64,000 nt of DNA, from positions 124,001 to 188,000 of the forward strand of contig JARWMV010000237.1 of NCBI GenBank assembly GCA_030998015.1. The letters are read 5' to 3'. This DNA is from Ceratorhiza oryzae-sativae. Taxonomy: Eukaryota > Basidiomycota > Agaricomycetes > Cantharellales > Ceratobasidiaceae. Each line of letters starts with the position of its first letter. The stretch's first letter is position 1. Below are positions 20,946 to 63,184 of this stretch, piece after piece. A model generated the notes under the pieces. That model did not search any database, had not been told where the DNA came from, and saw only the letters and a program-made list of their open reading frames with translations. The position numbers were made by a program, and so were the translations under genes.

Positions 20946-20968
20946 AATTTACTTGAGTTCTTTTTGAA

Positions 20969-25300: not shown

Positions 25301-25830
25301 ACAATCATGCAGAATGGCTTCAAAAGGGACATGACAAACTCAAGGCCACTCTGGAATTATCAAACCAAAGGGCCAAGGAATACTATGATAGGAAGCACTG
25401 GACCCCAGAAGTCATCAAGGTGGGAGACAAAGCCTGGCTCAACACCAGGAACATACAGACACAACAGGCCTCCAGGAAACTGGCCCACAAGAGAGTTGGA
25501 CCATTCAAAGTGGTAGCACAACATGGCACCCATGCCTTCAAATTGGACTTGCCAGTAACCATGAAAATACACCCAGTATTTCATGTCTTGCTCCTGACCA
25601 AACATAAAGATGATCCCTATGGACATCAGATTCCCTCACCTCCACCTGTGGTAACTCCAGAAGGAGAAGAAGAATTTGAAGTAGAACAGATCATAAAGTC
25701 ATGATACAACAAAAGGTCCAACGTCTTTGAATACTATGTCAAATGGCTCGGATATGATGAGTGACAATGGCTAACCTATGACAACCTGGTAAATGCACCA
25801 GAACTCATGGCTGACTATGTCAGATCACAC
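22354..25830 (+). pseudogene. pol: Pol polyprotein of element 2 (stops, dead RT)
   Basis: Domains in order: protease (MIDSGATSVFIHEDL, about 22552), reverse transcriptase (PVIFVKRKNGKLCMCIDY; active site now YMHN at 23506-23517 instead of YMDD), RNase H (ETDTSGYATGAVLLQ, about 23950), integrase (HHCC region about 24590-24730, TYDLITGLP, then SDRGPNF and a YHPQTDGQSERANQ block near 25070) and a chromodomain at the C-terminus (FEVEQIIKS..YYVKWLGYDE, about 25674-25763). In-frame stops occur at 22543, 23866, 24541, 24970, 25702 and 25762. Most are TGA where the sister or family has TGG, CGA or CAA. Confidence 0.85.
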
Positions 25831-42824: not shown

Positions 42825-45800
42825 TCACGAAGGACGTTCAAAGAAACCAGTCGCAGTGACACCCATGGCTGCTACTCCGCTGCCCGTTCCCGTTCCCGGG
42901 CGACCGAGTGCGATCGAGCCCTTGCGTGCGCCTTGCTTCTCGATGCTGATCACCGAGCGAGCACCTCGGATGGTGGATGCCGGACCGGAAGTCGAGCCTG
43001 TGGTATATGGGGACGAGAATGTGGTAGAGCCCGAAGACGGCGTTCGACGATGTTTAGGCATGACGGGCGAGGATGGGGCGGTCGAGACACCCAGGATCGG
43101 AGTCGATGTGCTGTGAGTCATCTTTGGAGAACGAGACCAGGCAGAAGGAGCGCCAGCCGATTTGGCCGTTGCTGACCTCGAGCCGCGGGAATACGTCGCA
43201 TACGGCACGGGCACGGATTGAGAGGAAGTCGCAGAGGCTGGAGTAGGAGGCTGGGCTGGGGCTGGAGTTGGAGGCTGGGATGTGCCTGATGTGGGGAGCG
43301 GTGAAGAGGGAGCAACAGACATGACGAGCATCGCCTCGTTCAGCTCGTCATCCTCGATATCCACACTCGACCTCGGCGCGCTGTCCAACGTGCTAACACT
43401 CGTGTCCATCGCCTTGGAGCAACCCCCTTCTGGCATACTCGTCGCGCTCATGTCGCCGGTCCCAGCGAGGCTCCAACTTCCAGAAAGACTCGACCCGCTC
43501 ACACTCGCACTCATACCGCCGAGCCCAACCCCGCCATCAAACTGCAGCTCAGACGGAACAGGCAGCGCTTCGCCACGATCTGGCACGTCTTCGAAAATCT
43601 CGAAATATCGCTCAATACAAATTTTGACAATCTCTCCAAGGGTTGTCGTTCCGGGTCGACGAGGAAGCGCGGCAGCAGCAGCACTAGCGACTGAACCTGA
43701 GCCAGGAGTGTTCCAAGTAGCAGACATTTGTTGTGCTCCTGCACTCGGAGGGACAGTACAAATCTTGACATCGCGGATGGGGTCGTTGGATCTGACGAGG
43801 TTCGGAGCAATACAAAGAGCGAGATTGTGGGCGTCCATCTTGTTTGCAACCGAACGTATCGAAACATCATGGAGAAGATCTGAAGTCAAGGCATTGTCAG
43901 CAAATGAAACAGAAACAGAAGGGTATCTAGGTTTCTATGACTTGGCCAAGGATGATAGAAGATACAAAATCACATGATTGGCGGTGGCAGTGATGCAGGC
44001 GCGCGCTCGGCACCGAATCCCCACGACTCTGAAGGAACGAGCAAGAGCGCAGACTCACGAAAGATATATGCCAGCAAGACAACTCGACAACCCCAACCCA
44101 TCGCTGGGAGCAACACTTCTCGAATATATTCCACACACGCATCGCCCTCGCCCCATCCTCCGACCGTGGCCAACTCGGCCTCACTTCCTACTCTTGCATG
44201 CCCCCGAGCTGCTCGTCCGTTCAAAACAGAAGTCGAGGATAGTTTCGATGTTGGCTGACCGCGTGGATCAGATGCGAGCCCATCTACCCCCCATCCTGTG
44301 CTCGGAGGACACCGCGCGATGACAGAGTATAATTCACCAGAAAAGATTGGCTCGGGCAAGTCCCTGAGGAATTTTTTAATGAGCACGGCAGCAATGTGGG
44401 GGTCTGCGTATTGAGCAAGGCTGACTTGATTGCCTGCAGATTGAAAAGGCGAGAAAAGAAGAAAGTCAGAAGGACATTAGTATGACCGGCCGAAAATGAG
44501 ACCCACCTCGATCATACGCGTCCCTCACGCTTCTCAAAATAGCCCCATTCGGACTTCTTCTAAACAATCCCTCGACTTCCAAATTTGGACCCAGCGGTCC
44601 ATCTGAACGAAGATAGTCGATACTGTCCCTAATGACGCGTGGCAGTGGAGACGATTCGCCGTCGGCCCCCATCAATGACTCGAGGGGCACACCGAATATC
44701 AGGGAAGAGGGAGATGTAGATGGCAGAGTTATCGTTCTTTCATGCTTCAGGTTTTCGCTGCAACCATGAACGCGCAAGATTAGAACGAGATGCTATTCGT
44801 GGATTTTCATACTTACTTGTATACCGCTGGAGCAATCTCGATCTGCGTGAGAGGGACGTGTCGTGCGAGTTCGGACAGAGTGGAAACATAAGTGATTTTC
44901 CGGAAAAACTTGGGGCTGGGTTTGGGATGACTTCAGTTAGCTCAGCATTCGCAATCAACGAGCAGTGGCGCACCTTATGACCGCGCCTGCGAGCGAAACA
45001 AACACTGTGGAAATACGTTGGCTGGTGCTCGAAATGGTAGGTACTATGACGTACTCTTGGAGAACCAGTCGGGTGAACAATCAGCTGTCAAAAACGACAT
45101 CAGAGTGGCTGTTCTATTGAAACGTGGTAAATAGACAGACCAGCCTTTTCAGGTTTTTACGGTATCTGCATGACACATCAGCAAAAGAGGATGTTGAACT
45201 GGGGGCTGACTTACTTGCGGCTGAGTCCACGATAGGCTTTCCATATCCAATTCCAACTGGGCGTGTGTCGGCCACCAGCGGCGAGAAAGACGACAACGTA
45301 GTCGTTCTCGACTGGACGGGAAACGTGTGAGCCGGGAGACCGGGAAAAAAGTACAGAGAGGGTGTACCATACAGGTCGAGATAGGCAAGGATGCGTCTGG
45401 GGAGTTGGTGTCAGAGGTACACCGCAGCTGGGAGAAATAGGGGCATACGAGAGCAGAATGTCGTAGGAAATCTGGCGTGGATCCGGGAAGGCCGCTGCTG
45501 TGACAATGACCCTGGGGTGGCGAGAGCACGGATCAGAGCGCGCTGAGCGTGGGCATGTCGGTCGACTTACATAGGCCGAGTTCTTGGCAAGTCTGTTAGC
45601 GATCCAGCCAGGAAAATTCCACGCGACTCACTCAAAGTCAACGCCCGCCTGGGTGATCACTCCTGCGACGGCTCTGTCGACGGCGTCTCTGTCCCCCGCC
45701 CGCATTCCCTCGTACTGCTCCTCGCCATCCACCAGCCCAAAGTCGGCATGCACGCCCCGGGGAGAAGGGAACACGCGGCTTCGGGGGGAGGGAGATGCCA

Positions 45801-46509: not shown

Positions 46510-47056
46510 TCAAGCCCGTGCGACTACTTTAGAGCAAGATTTTCGTCCAATCGGTGTACTTGTACACACTTGGCTCTTTATGGGATCAGCGCATGTAATA
46601 AAGGGCTCGGTACACACAAGCGTAATACGATCGGCGTGCGGATTGCGAGCAAGGCAATTAGGTGTCGTCTCGCTTGGTATCCACAGCGAGACGTCGGATA
46701 GCTGGTCACGAAGTACGGCTATGCCATACAATTCAAGGATGTTGGGGTGTTTGAAATTTGACTAAACGTATAACTCTCGCATCATTCGCTGACCAGCACT
46801 CTACTCACTAAGGTTTCGGTAAAGCGTAATTCAAGCCTGCGCTCGCATGCCATATCCTCCCACAAACGGCACAAGGCGCAAATGCGCCACCCCACGGGGA
46901 GCCGTAGTGGGAACATGAGACAGGGCCATTTGTCATCGCATAGTTCGTGACGGCCTGTATATCAAGCTCATGAGCGATGTCGCGAGTTCCACAGCCCGAA
47001 GAGTCCAGACGACTTCCGATACGCTCTCGTAAATGCCGCTTACGTCTCAGTATCAA
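46510..47056 (-). pseudogene. TKL-type kinase relic (N-lobe only)
   Basis: A decayed copy of the kinase unit. The first part matches the segment before and across the Gly-rich loop of the intact neighbours (RDIAHELDIQAVTNYAMTNG, at the position of EDV..LDL..), and the second the start of the next exon (FKHPNILELYGIAVLRDQLSDVSLW, about 46670-46745). The Gly loop and VAIK are lost and no catalytic loop or C-lobe follows. Confidence 0.65.
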
Positions 47057-47324: not shown

Positions 47325-50300
47325 TTACTTGGTTACTCGAGGATACGATCCGACAGAATTTACTATTGTACGGCCCGCAACTTTAAGTGTCACGTTAGCT
47401 ATTTGTATTTTAACAGTGTTGGGGAATCTACTTACGTTTGCCTCAACCTCGGAAACACTTGGCCGATTGCCGGGCTCGTGATCCCAGCACTGAGACATTG
47501 CTTCCCATAATGCGGCTGCCTTTTGCTCTTCCATCGAATCCAGCTGCGGTGGTCGCTCTGGGATTTTGCCAGTGGTGATTGCCAATATCACAGCTGGATC
47601 CATTCGGATTCCGCTATATGGCACCTCTCCTGTAATGATTTCCTGAGGCAACCTAAAACTCGCATTAATCAAATGATAAGATCTGGCTTACCAGGAATGT
47701 CTGGGTCTGGTAATCAGTTTATGTGAATGTAGTGAATTTGTCCGTACGACCCACCATTCCGAGTGCATACACATCCGCCAGCCTAGTGACATCACTTTCC
47801 TCATCAAACAATTCTGGTGCCTGTACGATGATATTCGTATTACGTTCCGAGATATCAAGAATTAGTGACTCACCGCCCACCTCAAGGAGAATGCCGAGCT
47901 ACTAGTTCTGCCAGTAAACTCAATGGTGTACTTTTTGAGGACAGTGTTTCCAAAGTCTGTGAGCTTTGCAACACCTGAATCGGAAACTAGAATGTTTGAC
48001 TATGACAAAAGTCTTTAAGACCGGATAACGTGTGACTAGAGGCTACAGCCTACCCCTTTAACATCCCCATGTACCTATGTGCAAAATTGAATGTCTGAAT
48101 GTGAAATGCCGCCCAATTGCAAAGACACGTACTGTATCTGAATCGTGAAGATAAGCTAGACCGGACAAGATTTGAAGGCACTAGCCAGAGTCAATGATGG
48201 CGGTTGGCAGAAGGAAAGGTGTGGAAGTACTCACCAGTTTGAACCGATCAACATTGTAATGTTCTTTAAGATAATTTGGGAGAGTTCCATTTTTCATCCA
48301 GGGTGACACGATTGATATCTGGTTCTGGAAGGTTGCCAGCCCAATTAACTCCAAGACATTGGGGTGCTTAAGCTTCGACCAAGTGTAGACCTCTTGGGCA
48401 ATATTCTAGATGTGTAGTTACGAAAACAGCTTCAAAAACCCATGTTGTAGCTCACTCACTTTGGAAGCTTGGCCAACCAAGCCCTCTTGCCTCAGGAATA
48501 GCCTTGGACATTTAATTGCGATATGTTGCCCTCCCAATAGCTGGCCGCTGTACACGTCTCCAAACCCTCCTCCAGCAATTGGGTGCGTCCCACAGCGAAC
48601 CAAATCAAGTTTACTGGTTACATCTTCGACGCCTCTATCTACTAAGTGCGCAATAATCTCTGAACCTACTATAAATCCAGTGTAATTGTGAGATCAGAAT
48701 CACCAGGTTTTGGACACATACCGTTTTTCTTGAGATGATCACTTGACTAGAGCGTGTCTGCTCTCCTATACTGACCCTCAACTAACATGAACGTGATGAA
48801 TCTATCGCAAACTGTGAAACGAAATTTGTCTCACTGTATGGGCGATATACCGGGCATTCGGTCGTGCTTCAGGATCCAGAATCCAGCACTGAGACATCAG
48901 GTTCCAGAGGGTATCGGACTGAATTTTATCGAATAAATCGAGCTCGGTCGGGCGCTCCGGGGACTTGTTGGAGAATACTGCATATATAACCTGCATATCT
49001 GACGTCAACTCATGAAACGGCACACGTCCCGTAATTATTTCCTAGCGCGGGGGTGTTAGTTTGTCGGAAGGCCCCAACTCCCATCCTTCGCTTACGAGTA
49101 GAGTCTGCAAATCACATAATGACCCATATCTAAAATCTAAGATAAACATACCATCCCGAGCGCATACACATCTGTCGGTTTGCTGAGATTACCTTCCTTC
49201 AATAACTCCGGAGCCTACGAAACGGGCGTGAGTACTCATATTAAGACTTCGTATTCAGAGTATTTACAGCCCACCGGACCGAAAACATGGTTTGTGTACC
49301 GGTTGCCGTAAACTGCATTGTTACGGTTTTTAAAGCGGCGTTTCCAAAACCAGAAAGCCTTGGGATGCCCGCTTGGGACACAAGAATATTGTACTTCATA
49401 TCAGTTAGATCGGCTCATGCCAAATTTACTCAATCAGACCTACACCCTTTAAGTTTCCATGTACCTGTATACCAAGATTGAGAATGATGTTCACTGCCCG
49501 AATTAAGTGATCACTCACGATATTATGATAATGCAAGTACTCGAGACCAGCAGACACTTGAATGCACTGATATAACAGTCAATGCGCCGAGAGGCCTACG
49601 TCTTGTAATGTACAGACCATCTGGATCCGGTCAGTTCCCGGGTTCATAGCTAGATATGCTGGTAATGTCCCGTTATCCATCCACAACGAAACTATGGAGA
49701 GTGCGTTCCTGAACAAAGCTAGTCCAACCAGTTCGAGGATGTTGGGATGATTAAGTTTTGACCACATATATAATTCTCTCGCCATGTGCTGCAAACATCA
49801 TGATAACCATGCTCGATTATTGCTGTATGCCATTGAATATACCTTGAGTTCTTTATGTCCTTGATTGTCACCCGCAAGAAAGACCCTTGGGCGTTTGATA
49901 GCCACTTTCGTGCCATCGCGTAATTCGCCACGATACGTGTCGCTGAAGATACCCCCTTCGATAGGATATTCGCCGCATCGAGTCAGATCCAAGATATTAG
50001 ATACGTCTTCACATCCATGGCCGACTAGACTCGCGATAATTTCCGAAGGTGGCTACCCAGAAGGCTTATCATGGGCAGGGCGAAGTGATTGATGTTACAT
50101 ACCGTGAGACTGCTAATCTTGGTTATGAAGCTCTCGTCAATTGCCTCCGTTCTTTTGATAGCATAAGTGTAGCCCGATCTTTTTGTATCGTCATAAAAGC
50201 CACTTACGAATTGTGGCTTAGTGATTGGGTAGATCCGGCTGTTGTCATGGGCATAGTATTTTCAGGACTTAGTTTATTCTGATCTTTTGTTTGTGGAGTG

Positions 50301-50746
50301 TCTACCTCAATAGCGATATCATGTGTGCTGGATGTGGAAGCAGCAGCAGTAGTGTCAACGACTCGTCTCTCAGTCACAGTGCCTGATGGAAACAGTGGAA
50401 CTCCCGCGGCGAGTCCGACCGGAGCAGGAGGCTTAGCCGGAGAAGCATCACGGCGACCTTGCGAGAATCGACTACGAATCATGCTCCCAACTCTGAAACC
50501 TGCATTACTCCATTCCTTTAAAGTAGCGCGGATACCTGTACGTGATTCCTGGCCCGCTTTGGACTGTTCGGATCCTGCGGCTTGGCCTGATTCAGGAGAT
50601 CTGCTACGACTTGTCCCTCCTGCTTCTTGTAGTAGGGTCGTGGACTTCAAATTCTTCCCCAAGCTTTGGTCTAAACTTATATCAAGGACGATATTAGCTG
50701 CGATTCAATCTAGAATAAAGGCAAAGACTAACTTGGGTATGGCCAT
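47325..50746 (-). CDS. tandem pseudokinase-kinase protein KA
   Basis: Starts MAIPN (exon 50746-50733, 57-bp intron), then a Ser/Thr/Ala-rich disordered region of about 155 residues (50675-50208), then domain 1 and domain 2, each preceded by a SEIIA.LV..G.EDV linker. Domain 1 (about 50060-48802): loop GGIFSD, VAIK, then VHGNLKG (Asn codon 49453-49455 instead of Asp) and LSGFG instead of DFG (49349-49351), so a pseudokinase. Domain 2 (about 48690-47325): GGGFGDVY, IAIK, HGD at 48063-48071, DFG at 47949-47957, DVYALGM and the C-lobe Arg of NRPSVSEVE, so catalytic signature intact. A phase-compatible 88-bp intron joins the two. Two separate genes is the alternative. Likely a signalling kinase; no transmembrane or receptor domain seen. 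Confidence 0.65.
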
Positions 50747-51373
50747 GACACTGACTCTCCCCGGAAGAGTTACAAAAGCGTATCACCCAATCGGCGTGTT
50801 GTTAAAGAGGGAGGCGAGAGATGGAGTCCCTCCCGGCTTCAGCACCAGCCAACAAATACCGAGGTGGGTGTTTGGTAATGTTTCCCGCCCATCGCGTGTT
50901 CACTCCGGGGCAGTGTTCACACGTGTTCTTCGTATCGCACTGTCAAGTTATAGCGCTGGGGCTGTTTCGATATGCATGAATGCTTGACCCATGAAGTCAT
51001 TTGAATTCATGGCGCGACATAATATCTCGAAACTGTTGAAAACCCAACTGTGTTTCGAAACTTTTGTCCATGCTGATTGGGTGATATTAAATGGCCCCGA
51101 CGAATGGTTTAAACAGCAATCAATGAAAAACGGGACTGCAATTAACGTTGATCGCTGTCATGGCTGTTGATTTGTGAATGGCAAATTCCATGGTGGGTGA
51201 CAGCCGGAAATTGGTGGGACGAGGAGTAGCATCATTGCGAACGCGAGTTGGACCTTGGGGGTCCATCGTGGTGGTTATGTTCAGATTCGTATGTCACGCC
51301 ACAGCGCTTTTACTAGCAACAACCCATTCGAGCAGCGTTCCAAGATGTGACCAAAGTGCGCCGATCGTGCCAT
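50747..51373. other. intergenic between kinase genes KA and KB
   Basis: Promoter region of KA and 3' flank of KB. The duplicated 65-bp block lies at 51180-51245. Plus-strand frame 50298-50987 is an antisense shadow of KA's first coding exon. Confidence 0.5.
51180..51245 (+). repeat. duplicated kinase 3' flank, copy 2
   Basis: Similar to 46258-46322; followed by GAGTTGGACC, also found just before copy 1 (46231-46240). Confidence 0.5.
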
Positions 51374-54258
51374 TCAAACATTATACAGTATGAAAAAAGT
51401 ATGAAATAATTGCCTTGATTTTTGGACCGGTTCAGCAAACTAAATCAGCGCGCGATTTCGTTCGTAGCCAGATAACTGATGAAAATTTTATTAATCCTAA
51501 TAGGGGCGAGCTATGTGGCAACACTCACTTCAACCTCGATCTCGTAGGCACTAGGGCGCTCCATAGGCTTGAGATTCCAGCAACTCAACGCCGTTTTCCA
51601 CAAAGCGTCCCCCTTGGCCTTTTCCATGTTATCAAGTTGTTCCGGGCGCTCTGGAGTCTGCCCTTGAACAATGGCAAACATCACAGCAACATCCGTAGGA
51701 AGGTGACTAAATGGAGTCTCTCCTGAAATTGCCTCCTATTTTATTATGTAAACGCCACATTCAACGTCGTAATCCAATGGATGTCTCACAAAGAACGTCT
51801 ATTCGATATATAAGCCTGGGACTATAGTCGAGAATTGTGCAATAACTGACCATGCCTAGTGCGTAAACATCTGCTTCTTTTGATGGCACACCACCCTGAA
51901 TGACTTCAGGAGCCTGAAAAAATTAACCATGTCAGCAGTCTGTACCAGTCAAGTAAGAAAGGAACCTGCTCACCGACCAACGCACAGAAAATTTTGAACT
52001 ATTCGAGTTCCCTGTAAACTCGAGTGTGTACATCTTCAGGAAAGCGTTGCCGAAATCTGCAAGCTTTGCTACACCATCCTCTGAAACTAGAATATTATCC
52101 TTTCATACGTGAGTATTAGATCCATCTAGGCGCTTACAATAAACGCACTCCTTTGATGTCGCCATGTATCTTAATATGGATGAGCATTACACTGAAACCC
52201 GTCTACTTAAACTCAGTACTCACGGTATTAGAGGCGTGGAGGTAGGCAAGGCCGGATGACACTTGCAGGCACTAACCATATCTCACAAGTTAGGAACTAA
52301 GAACTAACTTCGTCATGCTCACCGCCTGGAAGCGATTGGCCCATGGACATCTCTCAGATAATCAGGCAGTCTACCATTTGGTTGCCAAGAAGCAACAATC
52401 GAAAGCTGCTGCTGGAATATTGCTAGTCCAACGAGTTCAAGGACGTTTGGATGCCGTAGCTTCGACCATGTGTAAATCTCCCGGGCAATGTCCTTTGGAT
52501 ACAGTGAATATGGCGTGTTTTTGGGCGGCAATCAAGGTTTCTCACCCTTGAAGCCTCTCCAATTCGGTTCTTCTCTTGATAGAATAGTCTTGGACACTTG
52601 ATTGCAATTTTACGAGCCCCAATTAGTTGCCCCCGATAGATATCACCAAAGCCTCCGCATGCTATTGGCTTTGTTTCACAATAATTCAAGCTAAGCTCAG
52701 AGGTTACATCCAAAACCCCTTTAGCAACCAGCTGCAAAATAATGTCTTGGCCCGGCTGCAGAGTAATCATAACAGTAATTGCCTTTCCGTTTCCAGCCGA
52801 ATAGGGGAAACAATGCTACACACCGTTTTCCTAGATATACAGATTGTCGGTCGATCTTCTACGAGCAGTTCTAGCTATAATGTTCATTCCCGGTGTACTA
52901 TCAGATAATGTATTCTGAACGATTGCGTTCGGTTGCAGCCTACCCTATTTACCACTTCAGAGACTCCAGCACGATCTTCAGGTGTATGCAACCAACACTG
53001 CGACATTATGTTCCAGAGTCTGTTGGATTCGAACTCTCCCAGTTCACTTAGTGTATCGGGACGTTTTGGCGATATTTTTTTTAGAGCGATTGCGAAGATC
53101 ACTTGCATCTCGCTCGCTATATCGTTGAACGGGACCTGTCCTGAAGATATTTCCTAGTTTCGTCAAATTTCCACCGCTGACTGTCTGAATTTTCACCTCA
53201 ACATACCAGAAGAACCTGAGAAATAGCAATGTGAATATTTTGCAAGAACTAGAACAATGGCTTTGACTGACCATCCCAAGCGCATATACATCGCTCATCT
53301 TTGTGGGGCATGAATCTCCCCTAAGCAATTCCGGAGCCTAGTGCGCGTAGTAAAAATTAAGCTCTTCGGAGATGGGTATTCGATGGCTGTGCATAACTTA
53401 CAGTCCAACGAACACCGAAAACCTTTGCCACGCCCTTTGGTAGCCCTGGCCGGGGATTTTCCAACCTAGCGTGTCCAAAACCCGATAACTTGGGAGCCCC
53501 TGCCCCGTCGACTAATATGTTTGCCTTGCAATTTCTCAGTCTAAGACGAACAATGTTACTGCTGGCGACGTACCCCCTTGAGGTTACCATGCACCTATAT
53601 ACGCCGACGAATCAGGTACACCCTGCTCAACATAGTAATCGAATGCTTACCACACCCTGTCCATGCATGTATTTGAGCGCTGTAGACACTTCAACACACT
53701 TGGCCGACTTTCAGCATCATTACGCTCAAGAGCCGAGTTAGACGTACCAACTTCAAACGATTCGCCTCCGGGTGCTGTTGAAGGTATTCTGGTATGTTCC
53801 CGTTTTTCATCCACAGCGTTACGGCCGCGAGTTGGCCTCGAAACGAGGCAAACCCATAAAATTCAAGTATATTGGGATGCTTGAGTTTCGAGCAAACATA
53901 GGCTTCTTTTACGAAATCCTACTCGGCATCAGTCTACTGAAGTAGCTATCGAGTCTTGGGCACTACCGCTAAAACCCCGCGCCTCTCGTCTTCGTCCTGA
54001 GTGCTACGAATCCGCTGGGTCCTGATTGCTACCTTCACCCCGCCCAGTAGCGCTCCCAAGTAAATGTCACTAAACCCACTGGCAGCGACGGGATGATCAG
54101 CTATTCGAGTCAAGTCCAAGGCGTCGGTAACGTCGTCACATCCATGCCCCCGCAGCATTGATATCGCTTCCAAAGCATTCTGTGTATGTGCTTGATCAAC
54201 GCTGCATGCGATAACACATGGGGATGGTACTTGCCGTCGGAGCATTGGTTGGGTCCAT
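51374..54258 (-). CDS. tandem pseudokinase-kinase protein KB
   Basis: Probable start ATG at 54258 (short first exon MDPTNAPTA, spliced to ISMLRGHGCDDV); an upstream in-frame ATG at 54365 is an alternative. Domain 1 (about 54170-52950): degenerate loop ASGFSD, VAIR in place of VAIK (Arg codon 54021-54023), VHGNLKG (53583-53591) and LSGFG (Gly 53480-53482), so three key residues are lost. Domain 2 (about 52770-51520): CGGFGDIY, IAIK, HGD at 52158-52166, DFG at 52049-52057 and RPSAYEIEVE, catalytic set intact. Linker intron phases fit one protein, but an in-frame ATG at 52770 would allow domain 2 to be a separate gene. The last exon and stop (51374) are tentative. Confidence 0.6.
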
Positions 54259-54365
54259 GGATACGTGTAGCAATCAGAGGTAATGTGAGCTAAATCTTGC
54301 GCGCAGGGCGTTGACCGGAATGTGGTGGACAAGGGCAAGCTGCAAACCAACAATAAGCGCTTCAT

Positions 54366-55339
54366 CTCTCGTTTAAGTATGCTGATCTGCGCCGGAGCTT
54401 GCCCAGGCAGCAGACCGAATACTTAGCCGCATCTCGGCCAACCCCCGAAAAGCTAGCTAGCACATGATAATACCTCAGCGTCTAACAATGCTTCCGAGGG
54501 CTAACCCGATAGCGTTAGCACCAGTAGCTCATACTACTTCAGATCTACTCAGTACTGGGAAGCTTACTTAGGCCTATGGAGCCAGTATATACTAGCTAGA
54601 TATCTAGGGTTTAACTAAGCACAGACGTGAATAACCTGGTATACATATACACGCCCTCGCGCCATCTCTTTCCTTCCCTCTCTCTCTCTCCCCATCCTCC
54701 GACCCATTGTCCTCGCCATCCGACTGTCGCCTTGCACACGCCCTCCCATCTTACGTACACCCCATTCGGACCGCACTACTTTGCTTATCCTCCCTTGCTT
54801 CCATACTCCCGCCTCCCATCCGTGCATATTATGCCATATTGCACTAGCGGCAGTTTCGACCGCCCACTCGAGCTAGCTCGGCCCCTGCTGCACCATCCGA
54901 GCTCGCGCAGGCCGCCTCTAGGCGCCGCTCCCGATTCGCCCAACACCCCCCTTGCCAGTGCTACCGCTTACATGTACTTACACATATCTAATGCAATAAT
55001 TATACATGACTAACCGCGTCGGCGCAGGCCACGTACCCGTATACGCGCGTGTTGGTTTCTAAAATTAGACTAAGCGTTGCACCATTCATATCCCGTGAAA
55101 ACTGTCTTAAAAGGGGACCACGACAAGCAAGGGCATCTTGTATCCATTACTCAAATGGCTGCCTCACTATAAAAAAGAACAGCATTAAGCTTATCCCAAG
55201 GCCTATCCCAAAGGCTGACACCAATACAACAAACGTCCTAACCAAGAATCTCAAGAACAAAAAATCACCTTTTACAAGTATCCCCACATGTATGCATACG
55301 TCGTCACCGTCAAGCAACCCACCAACAACACGCTCGCCA
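54366..55339. other. intergenic, no gene seen
   Basis: About 1 kb with pyrimidine-rich stretches (54655-54720) and GC-rich blocks; no splice-compatible coding model or known repeat recognised. Confidence 0.4.
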
Positions 55340-55720
55340 GTCGAAGCACCGAATGAGTGGCTCCAGTAAACTCGAGTGTGTACGTCCTCGTCACGATGTT
55401 CTCGAACGCCGTGCGCTTGGCTTGGCGGGATTTGGACAACGAGACGTTCAGCTGTGTGATCATGTCATGTTAGCGTTGAGTATTTTCGTTATTCGAGGAG
55501 CAAGCTCACCCCCGGAGTCTATAAAAACGTTTGTGTTAATAATGATAGTTGCCTTGTGGATCATGATACGAACCTGATCGGTTAGATACAAATAGGCCAA
55601 GCCAATAGAAGTATTGACACAAGGCAAGGTCCGGTTCTCCATCCACGAAAACACAATCGAAAGTTGACCGCGGAATGTCGCGAGTTCGACCAGATCCATG
55701 ATACTCGGTTGCTTCGTTTT
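55340..55720 (-). pseudogene. TKL-type kinase relic with internal deletion
   Basis: Fragments of the same kinase family: ELATFRGQLSIVFSWMENRTL (about 55620-55690), then directly a GLAYLYLTD segment (the intervening DYL..DRFQL part is missing), NVFIDSGG, and a degraded activation region ending TRTYTLEFTGA (about 55350-55385), the family form being YTIEFTG. The DFG position reads AFE. Not functional. Confidence 0.65.
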
Positions 55721-56044
55721 CGATCCAGCGTACGATTCCAGAGTTTTAGGTTTCTCTATATATGCCGATGGTTTAACTCTCGAAGTGGTTCTCAGATTGA
55801 ATCGTACCTGCTTCCCTGGTAGATGGATACCGGACGACGGCTGGTGGGCTCAGGATGGTTTCCTTATGCGGAAAGACCCGGCTCGATATACGCTGCCAAG
55901 AACACCCGCGGCGACTGGAAGCACTGGTACCGGTATAGAGCTTGGTTTCTCGATCACAGGTTGAGCGACAGATCGTGGTGTCGTTACGGGAACGGGCTGC
56001 AGCGAATATTCGTAAAGGACAGAAAGCTTGAAAGCGAATTCCAC

Positions 56045-57570
56045 TCACAATATCCGACACGGTTTCAACCTTGTCGTCGGGTTGACCGCAACCACAGGGG
56101 CAGCTATCTCGGTGGTACAACCAGTAGCCAGGACGGGCGCAACCACAGGAACAGGCAGGACCTCGCAGGTAGCGGCTGGGGCTGGAATGACAGGTTCTGG
56201 TGGGCGCTCAATCGATTTCTCAGTCTGGAGCACCTCAGAGATCTGCGATCGAGGTTCCGGCAGGATCTCGTCGTGCTCTGGGCTCGGACAGCGTAAAGGA
56301 CCAAACGTCTCGGCCACATGCTCGAGCTTGGGGCTTGATGGCACAGGAATAGCCGCCGCGTCCATCGGCGCAGCAGCAGGGACGGTCGGCACAGGGATAG
56401 GAGGCGCGGCCGAAAACGTAAACCTTTCCTTGCCCTTGGGAGCCACAGACGAAAACTCGGGGATGCCATCCAAACTCCTTCGGGTATCATCGGGCGTCTT
56501 GACTCCGTCTTCGCTCTGCGCACGGCGATGGGCGGCCTTGATTCGCGCGACACTCGACCCAGGCTGACGCTTCTTGTACAAATCCATGTCTGTCATGCCG
56601 CGCTGCACAAACGAGCGACGAGGACGATGAACGAGCGGGCTACGCGGGTCGGGAGCGCTGGAGAAAGGTCACGTGAGATGATATCACTGACTCTGCAACA
56701 GGGTGCTTACTCTGGCGTAGTATCCGGAACGGTGAGGCTGGACGGGAAGGTGACAGGGAGAGGTTCGGTCCCAATGGATTTCATGATAGTCGGAACGAAG
56801 GTGATCGGTTCGGGACTGGGCGAGAACCGTTGGGCGGGGGTGGGCGAGGACGAGCTCGGCGCGGCGGGCGCGACTGTCGGCTCTGGCTCCGGCTCAGGAT
56901 GGTGGGGGCTGGACGACTCGCCGCCGGTGTGCTCCCAGCTCGAGGTCGTCTCGTGCATCACGTCCACAGGGCTCGGGCTCGACGAAGAGCGGGCGATTGA
57001 CGCGATCGACGGCGAGCGGCTGCGAGACTCGCTCGCCGGAAGCGAGTGTACAGAAGGCGATCGGCTTCGCGTCTTGTCTGCCCCCGCATCGGTCGAGACT
57101 CCGGCGGGAGCCATGCTGGTAGCTTCCGTTCCAGCAAGCGAAGCGTTTTGAGTAGCATCATCGCTTGGACCCGTCATTTGGGAGCTAGTGATAGACGGGG
57201 TATCGTGGGCGGATTCAACACCGGCGCTAGCGCTCATCACGGAAGACGGATTTGCCTCCGTGATCACAGCTGCGGGCGGTTCATGGGGATCGTTGCTTTG
57301 GGACGAGGGAAGAGAAACAGTCGAGGCAGAACGAATGTGGGCATGTCGAGTTCGTGAGGGTGTGGGAGATTCATGTTTGGTCGACTCGACAGATGCAATC
57401 GAACTCGTGTCCGATTTTCCAAATTGGAAGCCAGTTTTGCTGAGCACAATGTCGGTGTCGGTGGTCGTGGGGGCAGCGGGGCGCGCAGGAGATACGAGCC
57501 CCAGGCCGGGGCGTGCGGCGCGAGACGACTTGTCGGCGCGTGTGAATCGGGGGGTGGTCGTGCCGAACAT
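56045..57570 (-). CDS. Ser/Pro-rich disordered protein
   Basis: Two exons: 57570-56711 and 56657-56045 with a 53-bp intron (56710-56658). The product is about 490 residues, almost entirely Ser, Pro, Ala, Thr and charged residues (for example SRSRSPSIASIARSSSSPSP, PHHPEPEPEPTVAPAAP), with a basic RRSFVQRGMTDMDLYKKR stretch after the junction and no folded domain I recognise. It could be a stand-alone disordered regulator, or the N-terminal tail of a former kinase gene: long disordered tails precede the kinases of KA and KD, and a kinase relic lies just downstream at 55340-55720. Another splice near 56040 into a PV-rich frame (to 55850) is possible. Confidence 0.55.
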
Positions 57571-57578
57571 CAAGTGAT

Positions 57579-57893
57579 GTGCGGGGATCGCAGGCGAGGA
57601 CTCTCACCCACCCGTTTATCTATCATACGACACGCGCGTCGTGTGCGGTATCACTTGCCTTACTGCCTGTTGATGGTTTGTCGATACCAGCTATCCAGGC
57701 CCCTGGCGCTCTACACGTGTTTGGCTTCCAAACACAGTGGCACAGCCACGGCCCATCACTCGCCCGCGTCTGGCGGCCAGTTCCATGGGTTCACTTTGGG
57801 CTTTCCTTGGCTGCGGTCCAACGCGCTAACCCCGGCTTTTAATATTTCATTTTTTAACATCTTTATGCGCCCAGGAAGCCCTCAAACATGGTA
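57579..57893. other. intergenic
   Basis: Short region between the disordered-protein gene and the 3' end of kinase gene KC. Nothing recognised. Confidence 0.4.
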
Positions 57894-60720
57894 TTACTTT
57901 GGTACAATTGTGCCAGAACCCTAAAACTACGGCTAGACACTCGAGAGCTGTGTAGTGAGGGCTTAGCGCAAAATAAATTAAAAAAGGGTAATCGCTCACT
58001 TTGTGTTCAACTTCACTAGCACTTGGCCGGTGAGCGGCCTCAGGACTCCAGCATTGGGAGATTGTTTCCCACAACACATCGCCTTTGTTTCCCTCCATCT
58101 CACCTAGCTTCGCTGGGCGAGCAGGAGTGGTGCCCAATATAATCGCGCGCATAACTGCCACATCTGTCGGGCGATCGCAAAACGGTACTTCTCCTGTAAC
58201 AATTTCCTGCCAACGTATAAGCAGGCAAAAACTTGACCGATGTACGATAACCTTTTTCTCACAAGAAATGTCTAAAGCAGGATTTCAGATTATAGCTCAC
58301 TGGAAATAGCTGTACTACGTACCATACCGAGAGCATACACGTCTGCTTCTTTGGTTTGTGTGCTCCCCTCTAATAGCTCTGGTGCCTAAACACATGGCCG
58401 TTTTACACTCGATTTACCGCCCAAATATTGCTTACTAACCGACCAGCGCATAGAGAGCGGAAAAGTATCGCCCTTGCCCGTAAACTCGATGGTATACTTT
58501 TTCAAAAGCGTGTTTCCAAAATCTGTGAGTTTCGCGACACCTCCTTCAGATACCAAAATATTTTCCTACACAAGCGTCATAATCAGCCAATTAGACTACC
58601 GAAACAACACCTACTCCTTTAACATCCCCATGCACCTGTCGATTCGTAGAAATATTGAAAAAAATAATTTCTAAGAAGGAACTCTTGCTTGCTTACTGTG
58701 TTAGCTCCATGAAGATAGGCAAGACCTGCAGATATCTGCACACACTATAAAGAGCCATGACCGATCAGCACCGACATGTATAACTGGTAACTTGCTTACT
58801 AGCTGGAACCGATCGACTTTTGGATAGTTCTTGAGATATTTGGGCAGTGTTCCATTGTCCTGCCAGGGAGCAACTATCGACAGTTGCCCTTGGAACGTGG
58901 CAAGGCCAATAAGCTCGAGGATGTTCGGGTGCCGGAGTTTCGACCATGTGTAAACTTCCCGCGCTACGTTCTTTAGCTTATTCAACGATAATAGCCTCCT
59001 TCCAAAGCCGAAACACCTTACCTTTGCTGCCTCACCGGCCAACGTATCCTGTAGATAGAAAACCTGGGACACTTGATCGCTACATTCCCAGCCAATCAAC
59101 CGGCCCAGGTAGATATCGCCAAAGCCTCCACCTGCGATTGGATGCGTGCCACAGTTGTCCAATCCAGTTCCCGGGTCACATCGGCTACCCATGGGCAACC
59201 AAATGGGATATGATTTCTGAACCCAGCTGGAGAGCGGTTTTGTTAGATTTGTGTCTCACCTGGTTTATAAGAGACGCTGTACTGACCGTTCTCCTAGATA
59301 TTGTAATTGTTCCTTGAGAGCGACCTGATAAGAGCTCCTCAAGCTAAATTCGCTGGGATAGTTTGTTCATCCCCTTTGGTCTCGCTTGAAAACGACTTAC
59401 TTTACGAGTCACCTGAAATATTTCAGGTCGATCGTCTGGATCATACCTCCAGCAGGACAGCATGATATTCCATAATTTCTCGCCATTCGTCTTGCCGAGT
59501 GCGTCGAGCTCTTTGGGGCGTTCTGGATGTATTCCCTTGTACACCTTCCATATGACAATCAAATCGCTCTTGGTATCAAATGGCGGGCGCCCGGTGACGA
59601 TTTCCCATTCATCATCAAGCGGTTTCCTACATGAATATCATTTACACCCTCACTTACCAACATCACCTTACAAGTTTAATGCTATCTATTCAGAACTCTT
59701 GAGAGTTTTGATAGAAGGATTCGCTCACCCTCCCAAGCGCATACATATCACTCATTTTGGTGAAATTTACTCGCTCCATTAGTTCTGGAGCCTATTATAT
59801 GTGACGAAAATCAAAGTTTAGTAGCGGAACATTGAATTTACAATGATTAGGCATGGCCTACCGCATAACGAATCGAGATTGGCGGCTCTTCGAACACTTC
59901 GGACAACCACGGAGGTGGGTCTTTGAGCACAGTGTTTCCGAAGCTACATAGCCTGGCGATCCCCGCTTCATTGATCATCACTATTCTTGAATTCACTTAG
60001 TGATATAAAAACAGCTCGTCAAAGCTGACTTACCCCCTTAAGGTCACCATGCACCTGCACCCATCATTTATCACTCGAAAAAAGCTAAAATAACATGGCT
60101 ACTAGCTTACCATCCCATTCTCGTGGAAGTATTGAAGACCTCTAGACACTTGAATACACTTGGCCAAACCTCAGGTTAATCATATTTAGCAACTTGTTTG
60201 TACTTACCAATTGCAAACGGTCAGCATCTGGGCATCGGCAAAGATAATCTGTTAATGTGCCATTTTTCATCCACGCCGATATCGCCGATAGTTGACCGCG
60301 GAACAAGGCCATCCCGTAAACCTCAAGAACATTGGGATGATTGATTTTTGAGCCAACATAAATATCTTTCATCATCCACTTTCCGGTGTTAGCACGTTTC
60401 GATAATTATGGAAGGTTGGCTGCACCTGTAGAGACTGACGCCCATCCTCGTCAATGCGTCCACCGAGGAGCCTTTGGGATTTGATCACTATTTTTACACC
60501 ACCAAGGAGCATTCCTCGATAAATATCGTTAAGGAACCCTATGGCATATGGATATTCATCGGTACGAGCTAAATCCAGGGCGTGCGTAACGTCGTCACAG
60601 CCCTCTCGCTTCAGTAAGGATAATGCATCTGAAGGAGTCTGGCATTTGGCGTGATTGTGAGATCACTAGAATGTATCGTAATTGATTAAAACTCGCCATC
60701 GAGCGGCTAGCCATGTCCAT
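57894..60720 (-). CDS. tandem pseudokinase-kinase protein KC (N-lobe of domain 2 frameshifted)
   Basis: Probable first exon MDMASRSMA at 60720 spliced to ALSLLKREGCDDV. Domain 1 (about 60640-59390): loop AIGFLND, IVIK, HGD kept (60043-60051) but SFG in place of DFG (Ser codon 59943-59945), so likely inactive. Domain 2 (about 59270-57894): GGGFGDIY, HGD at 58624-58632, DFG at 58515-58523, HRPSASEVEH and a last short exon ending GSGTIVPK. Around 59050-59200 the frame is broken at GGG, TT and TTTT runs, once immediately at the VAIK lysine; restoring single bases in those runs would give the family sequence, so sequence error and pseudogene are both possible. Linker intron phases again fit one protein. 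Confidence 0.55.
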
Positions 60721-61294: not shown

Positions 61295-63184
61295 TCATGC
61301 TTTAGTGCCACTGGGCCACATTAATGCTTGGGTGAAAGAACTTACTTCCGACTCTACCTGAGCGGCACTGGGTCTCTCATCCGGATTAAACCTCCAGCAC
61401 TTATTCATCGTTTCTTGAAGCAACGCCGCTTGTCCCGCGCCCATATTTTCCAATTCTGCGGGAACTCCTGGCAATTTTCCGCCCATAATCAACATGCCTG
61501 CAATATTTTCTGGCTTGCTTTCAAACGGTCTTCCCGGTGACAGTCTCCTGCGGCCCGTGTAAGCATAGCGCGTCAGCATGATCGATTAGTCGTTAACCCA
61601 CAAAGAATACCTAAATGTCTTGGTCAAAATTTACTCTGGTCGTCAAATAGAAATCAACCTACCATTCCTAGAGCAAATAAGTCGGCAGGCTTCGTGTAAG
61701 AATGCGCCGCTCATCGAACAATTCCGGCGCCTGCGTATGCACGCTTTATAGCACGGTGCATGCAGAAACGCAGGGATAGGTATACTCACCGTCCATCGAA
61801 TTGAAACTTTGAGAGTGGCAGTAACGCTCGTGAATTCGATAGTACATCTCTTCAGCACGGTGTTACCAAAGTCTGCGAGCTTCGGCTCCCCCGCAATTGA
61901 TATTAAAACATTCATCTGCACCAGCCTTAATGACCAGTTCGAGGAAACTCGTGGCCACCCACCCCTTTGACGTCGCCGTGAACCTATCGGTATTTGTGAG
62001 TATTCTACGAAAATATAATTTGGCCCATGAATACCTACAATGTCGTGGCTGTGAAGGTAAGCCAGACCGGCTGATATTTGGGCGCACTAAACCAAATAAA
62101 TCAGATCACTGCGCTCGTGGGTAGGGATTGCGGATGCACCAATTGGAATCGATTTGCGCTTGGGTTCTTCGCTATATAATCCCGTAGAGTGCCATTTTCC
62201 ATCCACGGGGACACAATAGAAATCTGTTTTTTGAACGTGGCTACTCCAATCAGCTCGAGGACGTTGGGGTGCTTTAACTTTGACCACGCATATACCTCTC
62301 GGGCGATATTCTGAGCAAAATGGGTTAATACATCCCATCAAGGCTAGTTTGATCTTACTTTAGTTATTTTGTTCTTGTCTCCGCTTCCATTCAGAAATAA
62401 CCTCGGGCATTTGATCGCAACTTTTGTACCTCCGACCAACACTCCACGGTAGACGTCACCAAAGCCGCCGCCGACGAACGGAACTTCTGCGCATCGGCCT
62501 ATATCGAGCCTTTGCGTTACGTCCGAGCAGCCATTATTGGCCAGTTCAGCGAGCACTGCTCTAGCGGGCTAGCCCGAACCATTCACATCAGTAAGGAAAC
62601 CGAAGCAAGAAACTTAATCATACCATGCTACTCGATATCGTGGAAGCTCGCCTATGAACGTTCCGTAGATCGAGTCTCTTATTGTTAAATGTACTCGACT
62701 TTTTGCTATTCCCTTCATTCGATCCCGCAATCGCGGCGAGTTTGGATTGTATGGTAACAGTATCGTCAATGGGCGACAGGTCAGGAACGGAGCGGGCTGC
62801 CGGTCCGGTGCCCCCATATTTTTGCCGTACGCTTCGTGGTCTTAGAGTAGCTTGGCGTTGAGGTGAGTCTTCCATTTCACTTGCACTGTCGCTTTGAGCC
62901 CTCGTATGACTTCGACTACGGCGCCCATGATACGTGGGACGTTTTTGATTGAATCTTGTCTCGGGAGTATTACGGCTAATACTCCATCCCCTTTCCAGTC
63001 TTTTCAGTCGATCGGCCTCACTTTCATCTCCACTGGTTGCCGTACGAGACTGACTAGTGACTGACAAGCGGGAGGATCGACTTGGCTCGGGGCTCGAGGG
63101 GGATGGCGATATACATTTGTGTCGTTTCAGTCCGGATCGACCGGAAAAGTTGGAGAGCTTATCGGAGAGTTTGTGCTGCCGCAT
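61295..63184 (-). CDS. single TKL-type kinase KD with disordered N-terminus
   Basis: The kinase domain runs from a CSDV..LDI..VPF linker: GGGFGDVYRG, VAIK (about 62415-62425), HGD at 61972-61980, DFG at 61866-61874, C-lobe ERPSAAQVES, final exon SGTKA, stop 61295. All catalytic motifs are present. Before it lies a Ser/Arg/Pro-rich tail (about 63180-62620; SRSHTRAQSDSASEMEDSPQ) joined by a phase-0 intron after SSSM. The start is uncertain: ATG at 63184 (MRQHK) or an upstream exon ending YVIQRK that splices in phase at 63178. Only kinase locus in the array without a pseudokinase partner. Probably a soluble signalling kinase. Confidence 0.65.

What the first reader, a model, noticed from the sequence alone, without database searches (positions are those of the whole stretch)
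47325..60720. Repeated pseudokinase-kinase genes: a JAK-like architecture amplified in tandem
In three consecutive loci (KA, KB, KC) the upstream kinase domain has lost catalytic residues while the downstream one keeps them. Domain 1: KA has HGN and SGFG; KB has VAIR, HGN and SGFG; KC keeps HGD but has SFG and a degenerate Gly loop. Domain 2 keeps HGD, DFG and GGGFGD in all three. Linkers between the two domains are only about 200 bp and carry phase-compatible introns leading into a conserved EII..LV..G..DVT motif. In JAKs a pseudokinase next to a kinase acts as a regulator; finding the same polarity three times in an independent fungal expansion suggests selection for a regulatory pseudokinase, not random decay.
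Basis: partly seen in the sequence, partly recalled or inferred. Interest (0 to 1): 0.8.

Follow-up and report, generated by a model that had tools for sequence, protein, structure and literature searches.

The report
Decaying fungal pseudokinase–kinase gene cluster
A fungus related to Rhizoctonia carries neighbouring genes that each join a catalytically dead-looking kinase domain to a normal-looking one; the pairing is real, arose once before these genes were copied, and resembles other such pairings in this group of fungi, but only one of the three copies has both halves readable.

Summary
The anatomy is real: three minus-strand loci (K1 47.4-50.1 kb, K2 51.5-54.2 kb, K3 58.0-60.6 kb) each hold two homologous kinase domains, the first missing catalytic residues, the second keeping them. 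(1) The three first domains form one clade, so the polarity arose once and was copied; it is not a threefold coincidence. (2) Domain 2 is frameshifted in K2 (once) and K3 (four times); K1 has both domains open, but its junction is in frame only by a splice route different from K2 and K3; the neighbouring single kinase K4 is broken too. (3) HGN is one step from HGD, the motif of 164 of 169 intact family domains, so it says little for JAK likeness. Against pure decay: K1 and K2 domain 1 are open over 8 exons at near-saturated synonymous divergence. Among 164 relatives (160 named Rhizoctonia/Ceratobasidium), pseudokinase domains are common in multi-kinase proteins, in both orders (29 p-K, 12 K-p of 52 callable), with up to 36 inferred origins. 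The closest precedent is plant tandem kinase-pseudokinases rather than JAKs. Most likely domain 1 is a non-catalytic docking or regulatory partner of the kinase in a birth-and-death family.

The parts
48835..50049 (-). K1 domain 1: pseudokinase (Gly loop lost, HGN, GFG; b3 Lys and aC Glu kept), 8 exons incl. 9-nt microexon, frame open
48667..48831 (-). K1 linker between D1 and D2. The junction is one base off relative to K2/K3; in-frame splice routes exist but differ from those of K2/K3
47433..48666 (-). K1 domain 2: kinase with all catalytic residues (GGGFGD, K, E, HGD, K, N, DFG), 8 exons, frame open
50204..50704 (-). Probable N-terminal exon of K1: no Pfam match; start codon not determined
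   Evidence: assignment to K1 is inferred from a splice join read by eye
52941..54176 (-). K2 domain 1: pseudokinase (b3 Lys to Arg, HGN, GFG), 8 exons, frame open (end is the alignment's; the last codon may be intron)
52753..52940 (-). K2 linker with LELL...ISRKT exon, in frame
51526..52752 (-). K2 domain 2: catalytic residues present, one frameshift in exon 2
59398..60635 (-). K3 domain 1: pseudokinase (HGD kept; catalytic Asn, DFG Asp and Gly loop lost); only a non-homologous splice route joins YALGR to EIVTG
59224..59397 (-). K3 linker with LEELL...ISRRT exon, in frame
57997..59223 (-). K3 domain 2: catalytic residues present, four frameshifts, all in exon 1
61343..62565 (-). K4: single kinase domain of the same subfamily, catalytic residues present, two frameshifts
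46618..46800 (-). Relic of a further kinase domain (one exon-sized match, 53% identity to K1D1); a wider alignment over 45.7-47.0 kb is poor, with stops and frameshifts

Best explanation
This is a local birth-and-death cluster of fungal TKL/FslK-like kinase genes in a Ceratobasidiaceae-like fungus. One ancestral gene acquired two kinase domains by internal duplication, introns included. Its first domain lost catalysis, and the whole gene was then copied to give K1, K2 and K3. For most of its history domain 1 was kept as a folded, non-catalytic module. I infer that it docks partners, or regulates the kinase next to it in cis, as pseudokinases in JAKs do and as has been proposed for plant tandem kinase proteins. 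The cluster is now eroding: K1 is the only copy with both domains open, and K2 D2, K3 D2 and K4 are frameshifted. Shown: homology, catalytic losses, intron structure, single origin of D1, open K1/K2 D1 frames against a neutral expectation, frameshifts in the assembly. Inferred: translation as one protein, loss of activity, docking or regulation in cis.
For: Two-domain structure with the same 8-exon pattern in both halves of K1 and K2. D1s form one clade, D2s another, with the same branching order K1,(K2,K3) in both. K1D1 and K2D1 open at pS 0.74 between them, against 0 of 300 stop-free neutral runs at 0.4 or 0.8 substitutions per site. PF07714 143 bits for K1D1 and 147 for K1D2. Open pseudokinase-kinase pairs elsewhere in the same genome: L018 (both domains group with those of P0057 of Ceratobasidium sp. 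392) and L032. Frames: 17 of 26 same-family domains outside the window (aligner score over 300) had no frameshift or stop.
Against: No transcript or protein evidence. K1's fusion needs a splice route different from its paralogues. D1s in the window evolve faster than D2s (pN 0.34-0.38 against 0.22-0.26), which also fits relaxed constraint. Several frameshifts look like single missing bases and could be assembly errors; no second allele of K1, K3 or K4 was found to check, and 9 of 26 family copies elsewhere are broken too. Inter-domain arrangement is not settled by the models (pTM 0.49 and 0.67).
Confidence: 0.6

Rival explanations
1. Plain decay. Tandem duplicates of a redundant kinase gene lose function piece by piece; domain 1 lost catalysis first by chance and nothing is selected for.
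For: Frameshifts in K2 D2, K3 D2 and K4, a relic at 46.6-46.8 kb; faster D1 evolution; 9 of 26 family domains scored elsewhere in the genome also carry frameshifts or stops.
Against: K1D1 and K2D1 are open in all 8 exons despite near-saturated synonymous change; neutral runs of that length gained stops. In the clade A relatives D1 is more alike than D2 in 7 of 8 pairs. This rival probably describes the present state of K3, and perhaps K2, but not the history of D1.
Confidence: 0.2
2. JAK-like autoinhibition proper: D1 packs on D2 near the hinge and holds it inactive until a signal releases it.
For: Same order as JAK JH2-JH1; HGN in K1D1 and K2D1 as in JAK JH2 (PMC6287396 passage); b3 Lys and aC Glu kept in K1D1, so nucleotide binding is conceivable.
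Against: Reverse order is common in relatives (12 of 52 callable two-domain proteins). No DPG and no aC Ala. Whole-chain match of the clade A model to JAK1 gives rmsd 22.8 and TMq 0.33 over 644 columns, that is one domain at a time; for the clade B model no JAK chain is among the 50 rows listed. HGN is one step from the family's HGD.
Confidence: 0.15
3. The domains are separate genes, or the frameshifts are assembly errors, so the cluster is either three D1 genes and three D2 genes or three intact fusions.
For: K1 junction is off by one base relative to K2/K3; many lesions are single-base and several lie in short homopolymers (read by eye).
Against: K2 and K3 linkers splice in frame through a shared LE.L...ISR(K/R)T exon. 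In K1 the unspliced frame upstream of D2 runs to a stop without an ATG (read by eye). Annotated relatives carry both domains in one protein (62 of 164 with two, 7 of 164 with three), though gene models may fuse neighbours. 17 of 26 family copies in the same assembly are frame-clean.
Confidence: 0.2

Closest known systems
Plant tandem kinase-pseudokinases (TKPs; WTK1/Yr15, RPG1)
   Same: Two kinase-fold domains in one protein, one degenerate; in WTK1 the kinase is a non-RD Ser/Thr kinase; the family is called polyphyletic, and none of the 92 had additional conserved domains (PMC6170490, passages). The fungal set is also non-RD (HGD) and polyphyletic (up to 36 inferred origins).
   Different: WTK1 comes from plant WAK/RLCK kinases, this from a fungal TKL/FslK-like lineage; WTK1 is kinase first; disease resistance is reported for WTK1 and other plant TKPs (listings), whereas no function is known here; some fungal relatives have further domains (Pfam lists).
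Janus kinases (JH2-JH1)
   Same: Pseudokinase before kinase; HGN in place of HRD (K1, K2).
   Different: No FERM or SH2 match in the one upstream exon scanned, no DPG, aC Glu kept in K1/K2, D2 is not a tyrosine kinase by its HGDVK loop, both orders in relatives.
FslK, fungi-specific kinase lineage (PMC3937382)
   Same: Agaricomycete expansion near TK/TKL; lacks TK motifs; has Pro where TKs have L/M after GxR.
   Different: Described as mostly without additional domains and conserved in catalytic residues; the abstract and the sections read (4 part 1 of 2, and 9) mention no tandem pseudokinase-kinase proteins. Membership by tree was not tested.
GCN2 (recalled, no call)
   Same: Pseudokinase domain before a kinase in one fungal protein.
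   Different: Recalled only: carries RWD and HisRS-like domains and is not an expanded family.

Membership tests
Protein kinase fold (PF07714) | Profile match above cut-off over the whole domain | tested here: met
   K1D1 143.3 bits, K1D2 147.3 bits, cut-off 23.1; K2 and K3 domains were not scanned singly
Pseudokinase (sequence definition) | Loss of b3 Lys, HRD Asp or DFG Asp | tested here: met
   K1D1 and K2D1 lose HRD Asp and DFG Asp (K2D1 also Lys); K3D1 loses DFG Asp
Pseudokinase (sequence definition) | No phosphotransfer activity | not testable with these tools
   Needs protein
Janus kinase | Pseudokinase N-terminal to kinase in one chain | tested here: inconclusive
   Order met in the DNA; one chain needs cDNA, and the K1 junction is off by one base
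Janus kinase | JH2 motifs HGN and DPG, Ala in aC | tested here: not met
   HGN in 2 of 3; GFG/GFG/SFG; aC Glu/Glu/Asp; JAK motifs from passages of PMC6287396
Janus kinase | N-terminal FERM-SH2 | tested here: inconclusive
   No Pfam match in the 166-aa upstream exon of K1; full N-terminus not determined
Janus kinase | Tyrosine-kinase catalytic loop in the kinase domain | tested here: not met
   HGDVKGSN in K1D2, no AARN in any D2
Janus kinase | JH2-JH1 packing | tested here: inconclusive
   Only homologues modelled; TMq 0.33, rmsd 22.8 to 8ewy_A; pTM 0.49
Plant TKP | Kinase and pseudokinase domains in one protein without other domains | tested here: inconclusive
   Two domains in one protein in many annotated relatives; for the window genes fusion rests on splice models and the N-terminus is not determined
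Plant TKP | Plant RLK/RLCK ancestry | tested here: not met
   116 of the 120 listed best hits are named Rhizoctonia or Ceratobasidium, 3 other fungi, 1 unnamed; plant kinases appear only far down
FslK | Lacks TK-specific motifs; Pro after GxR | tested here: met
   By eye: HGDVKGSN, RWxAPE without the TK Pro, ERP, against PMC3937382 section 4
FslK | Groups with FslK in a kinase tree | not tested
   No reference FslK sequences were held

The most novel reading that the evidence does not exclude
Ceratobasidiaceae have, independently of plants and animals, turned a large non-RD kinase family into a repertoire of tandem kinase-pseudokinase receptors or switches: pseudokinase halves act as changeable sensors or decoys, cis kinases signal, and copies turn over by birth and death, as in plant immunity. 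The window shows one such array in the middle of its turnover.
Probability: 0.18. Interest if true: 0.78.

Novelty: new variant of a known kind. Interest (0 to 1): 0.45.

Why it matters
If domain 1 regulates or senses, these fungi give many natural replicates (up to 36 inferred losses, 26 of them mainly in multi-kinase proteins) of how a kinase becomes a pseudokinase, often beside an active partner. It would be a third lineage, besides plant TKPs and animal JAKs, in which tandem kinase-pseudokinase proteins evolved. It also warns that polarity repeated in a tandem array is not independent evidence.

Tried and rejected
Independent origin of the three pseudokinases: rejected by the domain trees. 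JAK convergence through HGN: weakened, because 164 of 169 intact kinase domains in the set carry HGD. A second haplotype to check the lesions: DNA of K1, K3, K4 and the left flank found no second copy (the last two kinase searches showed only the query and weak paralogue pieces, only a short repeat); K2 was not searched alone. Polarity as a rule: tip counts favour pseudokinase first (39 of 68 first domains against 28 of 77 later ones, Fisher p = 0.013), inferred origins do not (16 against 10, p = 0.33). dN/dS: synonymous sites mostly saturated, so only pN and pS are given. I first thought K1 had a single weak-donor route and K3 D1 a dead splice site; an exhaustive scan found other in-frame routes, so both are stated as uncertain. 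The viral fold search listed kinases where a name was given; not used further. VIA-align listed 50 rows, 49 of them on domain 1; no JAK two-domain row was listed, which says nothing either way. Literature: ten searches showed, in their listings, no paper on tandem pseudokinase-kinase proteins in these fungi; this is a statement on those listings only.
Full report
WHERE IT IS. The window lies on contig C237 (124001-188000) of an unnamed 48.8-Mb genome. Of the 120 best relatives listed, 116 are named Rhizoctonia or Ceratobasidium, 3 are other fungi (Thelephora, Tulasnella) and 1 has no name, so I treat the source as a Ceratobasidiaceae-like fungus. The identities listed reach about 61%, so the species itself is not named.

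ANATOMY. I wrote a spliced aligner (GT-AG introns, frameshifts marked) and aligned each domain. K1 D1 50049-48835 and D2 48666-47433, K2 D1 54176-52941 and D2 52752-51526, K3 D1 60635-59398 and D2 59223-57997, K4 62565-61343. Domains other than K3 D1 show the same 8 exons, including a 9-nt microexon (TLL, TFL, VLL and the like). Of 17 clean family domains elsewhere in the genome, 13 have 8 exons, 3 have 7 and 1 has 9 in the same alignment, so the pattern is a family trait, and both halves are best read as one internal duplication.

CATALYTIC RESIDUES. D1 of K1 and K2 lack the HRD Asp (Asn) and the DFG Asp (Gly); K2 D1 also has Arg for the b3 Lys; K3 D1 keeps the HRD-type Asp but loses the DFG Asp (Ser), the catalytic Asn and the Gly loop. 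D2 of all three keeps Lys, Glu, Asp, Lys, Asn and DFG; K2 D2 has Cys for the first Gly. 164 of 169 intact domains in the set carry HGD, not HRD, so HGN differs from the norm by one residue.

LESIONS. K2 D2 has one frameshift, K3 D2 four, K4 two. An exhaustive scan of splice routes with up to two introns, scored with donor and acceptor frequencies from 84 introns of intact family members, shows that K2 and K3 linkers join in frame through a shared LE.L...ISR(K/R)T exon. K1's junction is one base off; routes in frame exist (best score 22.9, against 24.7 for the homologous K2 route and 20.2 for the homologous K3 route), but they use other splice sites and do not keep that peptide. K3 D1 joins YALGR to EIVTG only with an insert or with loss of that stretch. 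Is the assembly to blame? Of 26 same-family domains outside the window with an aligner score over 300, 17 have no frameshift or stop and 9 do. CCT and HSP70 hits were only read by eye: the adjoining pieces I compared leave room for an intron, one pair on C17 being unclear; no spliced control was run on them. So most lesions are probably real, but no second allele of K1, K3 or K4 was found and single-base errors cannot be excluded.

ONE ORIGIN, NOT THREE. In two FastTree trees (201 tips; 267 tips) K1D1, K2D1 and K3D1 form one clade (0.86, 0.83), joined by one single-domain protein of Ceratobasidium sp. 428 (P0109; 0.91, 0.965), next to the clade that holds the D2s. In both D1 and D2 the order is K1,(K2,K3). 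The D2-type protein P0080 of Ceratobasidium sp. AG-Ba falls inside the K2/K3 D2 clade (0.97), so the copying is older than the split from that fungus. The simplest history: one two-domain gene whose D1 had already lost the DFG Asp, then copying of the whole gene. HGN in K1 and K2 with HGD in K3 means that the HRD Asp was lost twice, or lost and regained.

IS D1 UNDER CONSTRAINT? Among D1s pS is 0.66-0.74 and pN 0.34-0.38; among D2s pS is 0.74-0.79 and pN 0.22-0.26 (K3D1 rests on a doubtful exon model). In neutral simulations from K1D2, 1 of 300 runs at 0.2 substitutions per site was stop-free and 0 of 300 at 0.4 or 0.8. K1D1 and K2D1 have no stops and no frameshifts; K1D1 scores 143 bits against PF07714. 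So D1 was kept as a fold for most of its history, though more loosely than D2. This test does not show present-day selection.

RELATIVES. I classed domains in 164 proteins: P0001-P0169 less five (P0099, P0100, P0105, P0121, P0159; other organisms). Four of the 164 carry no name (P0025, P0125, P0151, P0153), the rest are named Rhizoctonia or Ceratobasidium. P0170-P0218 (49, low-ranked, mostly other organisms but with three Rhizoctonia/Ceratobasidium proteins, P0175, P0177, P0187) were left out. The pool is the listed hits only, 120 of 1111 and 120 of 469, with overlap. 62 have two domains, 7 three, 89 one, 6 none that passed the length filter. Of 52 two-domain proteins with both domains callable: pseudokinase-kinase 29, kinase-pseudokinase 12, both kinase 8, both pseudo 3; ten more were not callable in one domain. 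Two of the kinase-pseudokinase cases (P0043, P0058) look like fused or reversed neighbours of one clade. Adding the window and own-genome domains, pseudokinases make 67 of 145 callable domains in multi-kinase proteins and 16 of 107 in single ones (Fisher p = 1.7e-7; 15 of 267 tips not callable). Tips are related, and the query was itself a pseudokinase-kinase protein, so the enrichment is an upper impression. Counting maximal all-pseudokinase clades, with loss taken as irreversible, gives 36 origins: 16 mainly in first position, 10 in later position, 10 in single proteins. This is an upper bound: 25 rest on one tip, and some of those are broken copies or doubtful gene models (for example L023, L027, P0082). 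DFG Asp to Gly is the commonest change (10 of 36 origins; 10 keep the Asp).

SAME GENOME. Of the 25 stretches fetched, L018 holds an open pseudokinase-kinase pair whose two domains group with the two domains of P0057 of Ceratobasidium sp. 392 (0.91, 0.93), so that pair is probably older than the split of these fungi. L032 holds another open pair; L033 a broken pair. In the clade that contains L018 (clade A), D1 is more alike than D2 in 7 of 8 compared pairs (one of them nearly tied, 0.94 against 0.93), for example 0.82 against 0.56, and again in L018 against P0057 (0.62 against 0.55); in 9 of 9 pairs of three other clades, and in the window, D1 is less alike. Pairs overlap, and in P0035 at least the D2 may not be the true counterpart, so this is a hint, not a test, that a pseudokinase half can matter as much as its kinase.

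STRUCTURE. Models of two homologues: P0021 of clade A (pLDDT 78.9, pTM 0.49) and P0066 of clade B (84.3, 0.67). Against the PDB both match single kinase domains well. The best whole-chain partners are a duplicated EGFR kinase (TMq 0.34 and 0.39, rmsd 18-19) and, for P0021, JAK1 8ewy_A (TMq 0.33, rmsd 22.8): each domain fits, the arrangement does not. The interface stays open.

COMPARISON. Plant TKPs are the closest precedent: 92 putative proteins, none with further conserved domains, a non-RD kinase in WTK1, a polyphyletic origin, both domains needed for Yr15 resistance, and a proposed decoy role (PMC6170490, passages only). JAKs share order and HGN only. The FslK paper (PMC3937382, abstract, section 4 part 1 of 2 and section 9) describes an Agaricomycete expansion, mostly without additional domains and with catalytic residues conserved. 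PMC2838846 (passages) reports the TKL expansion in Laccaria. PMC12881547 (passages) notes fungal HELL domains joined to kinase/pseudokinase domains, a different architecture.

VERDICT. Real anatomy, over-read. The cluster is a decaying local copy of a wider and more interesting pattern, recurrent tandem kinase-pseudokinase proteins in these fungi. A regulatory or docking role for D1 is the best guess; JAK-style autoinhibition is possible but not supported in particular.

Noticed in passing
L018 2759-5372 (C241) and P0021, P0035, P0038, P0054, P0057, P0059, P0068, P0072, P0089: A separate pseudokinase-kinase lineage (D1 mostly H(S/G)A and GFG, b3 Lys kept) shared between species, in which the pseudokinase is mostly more alike between relatives than the kinase.
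   Followed up: partly
L032 1052-3686 (minus, C66): Another open pseudokinase-kinase pair in the same genome (D1 GFG, catalytic Asn to His, Gly loop lost; D2 with intact catalytic residues).
   Followed up: partly
L031 1006-4993 (C7), also L029 and L030: Loci with two or three adjoining kinase domains of a more distant kinase group; their later domains align poorly and were not classed.
   Followed up: no
window 8194-10077 and 20957-25704 (+): Remains of LTR retroelements (gag, protease, RT, RNase H and Tf2-1-like SH3 matches) in the A+T-richer left part of the window.
   Followed up: partly
window 42825-44476 (-): RhoGAP-domain gene left of the kinase cluster.
   Followed up: no
window 56045-57603 (-): Two long Ser/Pro-rich reading frames between K2 and K3 with no Pfam match.
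   Followed up: no
relatives: The same kinase domain is listed with SH3, WD40-like, Kelch-like, HMG box, TPR/CHAT, Ras-association and Rho-type GTPase domains in other proteins, by precomputed Pfam lists.
   Followed up: no
G000 C252, C1, C2, C43: Family exons with the same score and identity occur on several contigs (also C70 and C237 at 189-190 kb), suggesting recent copies or haplotype contigs.
   Followed up: no
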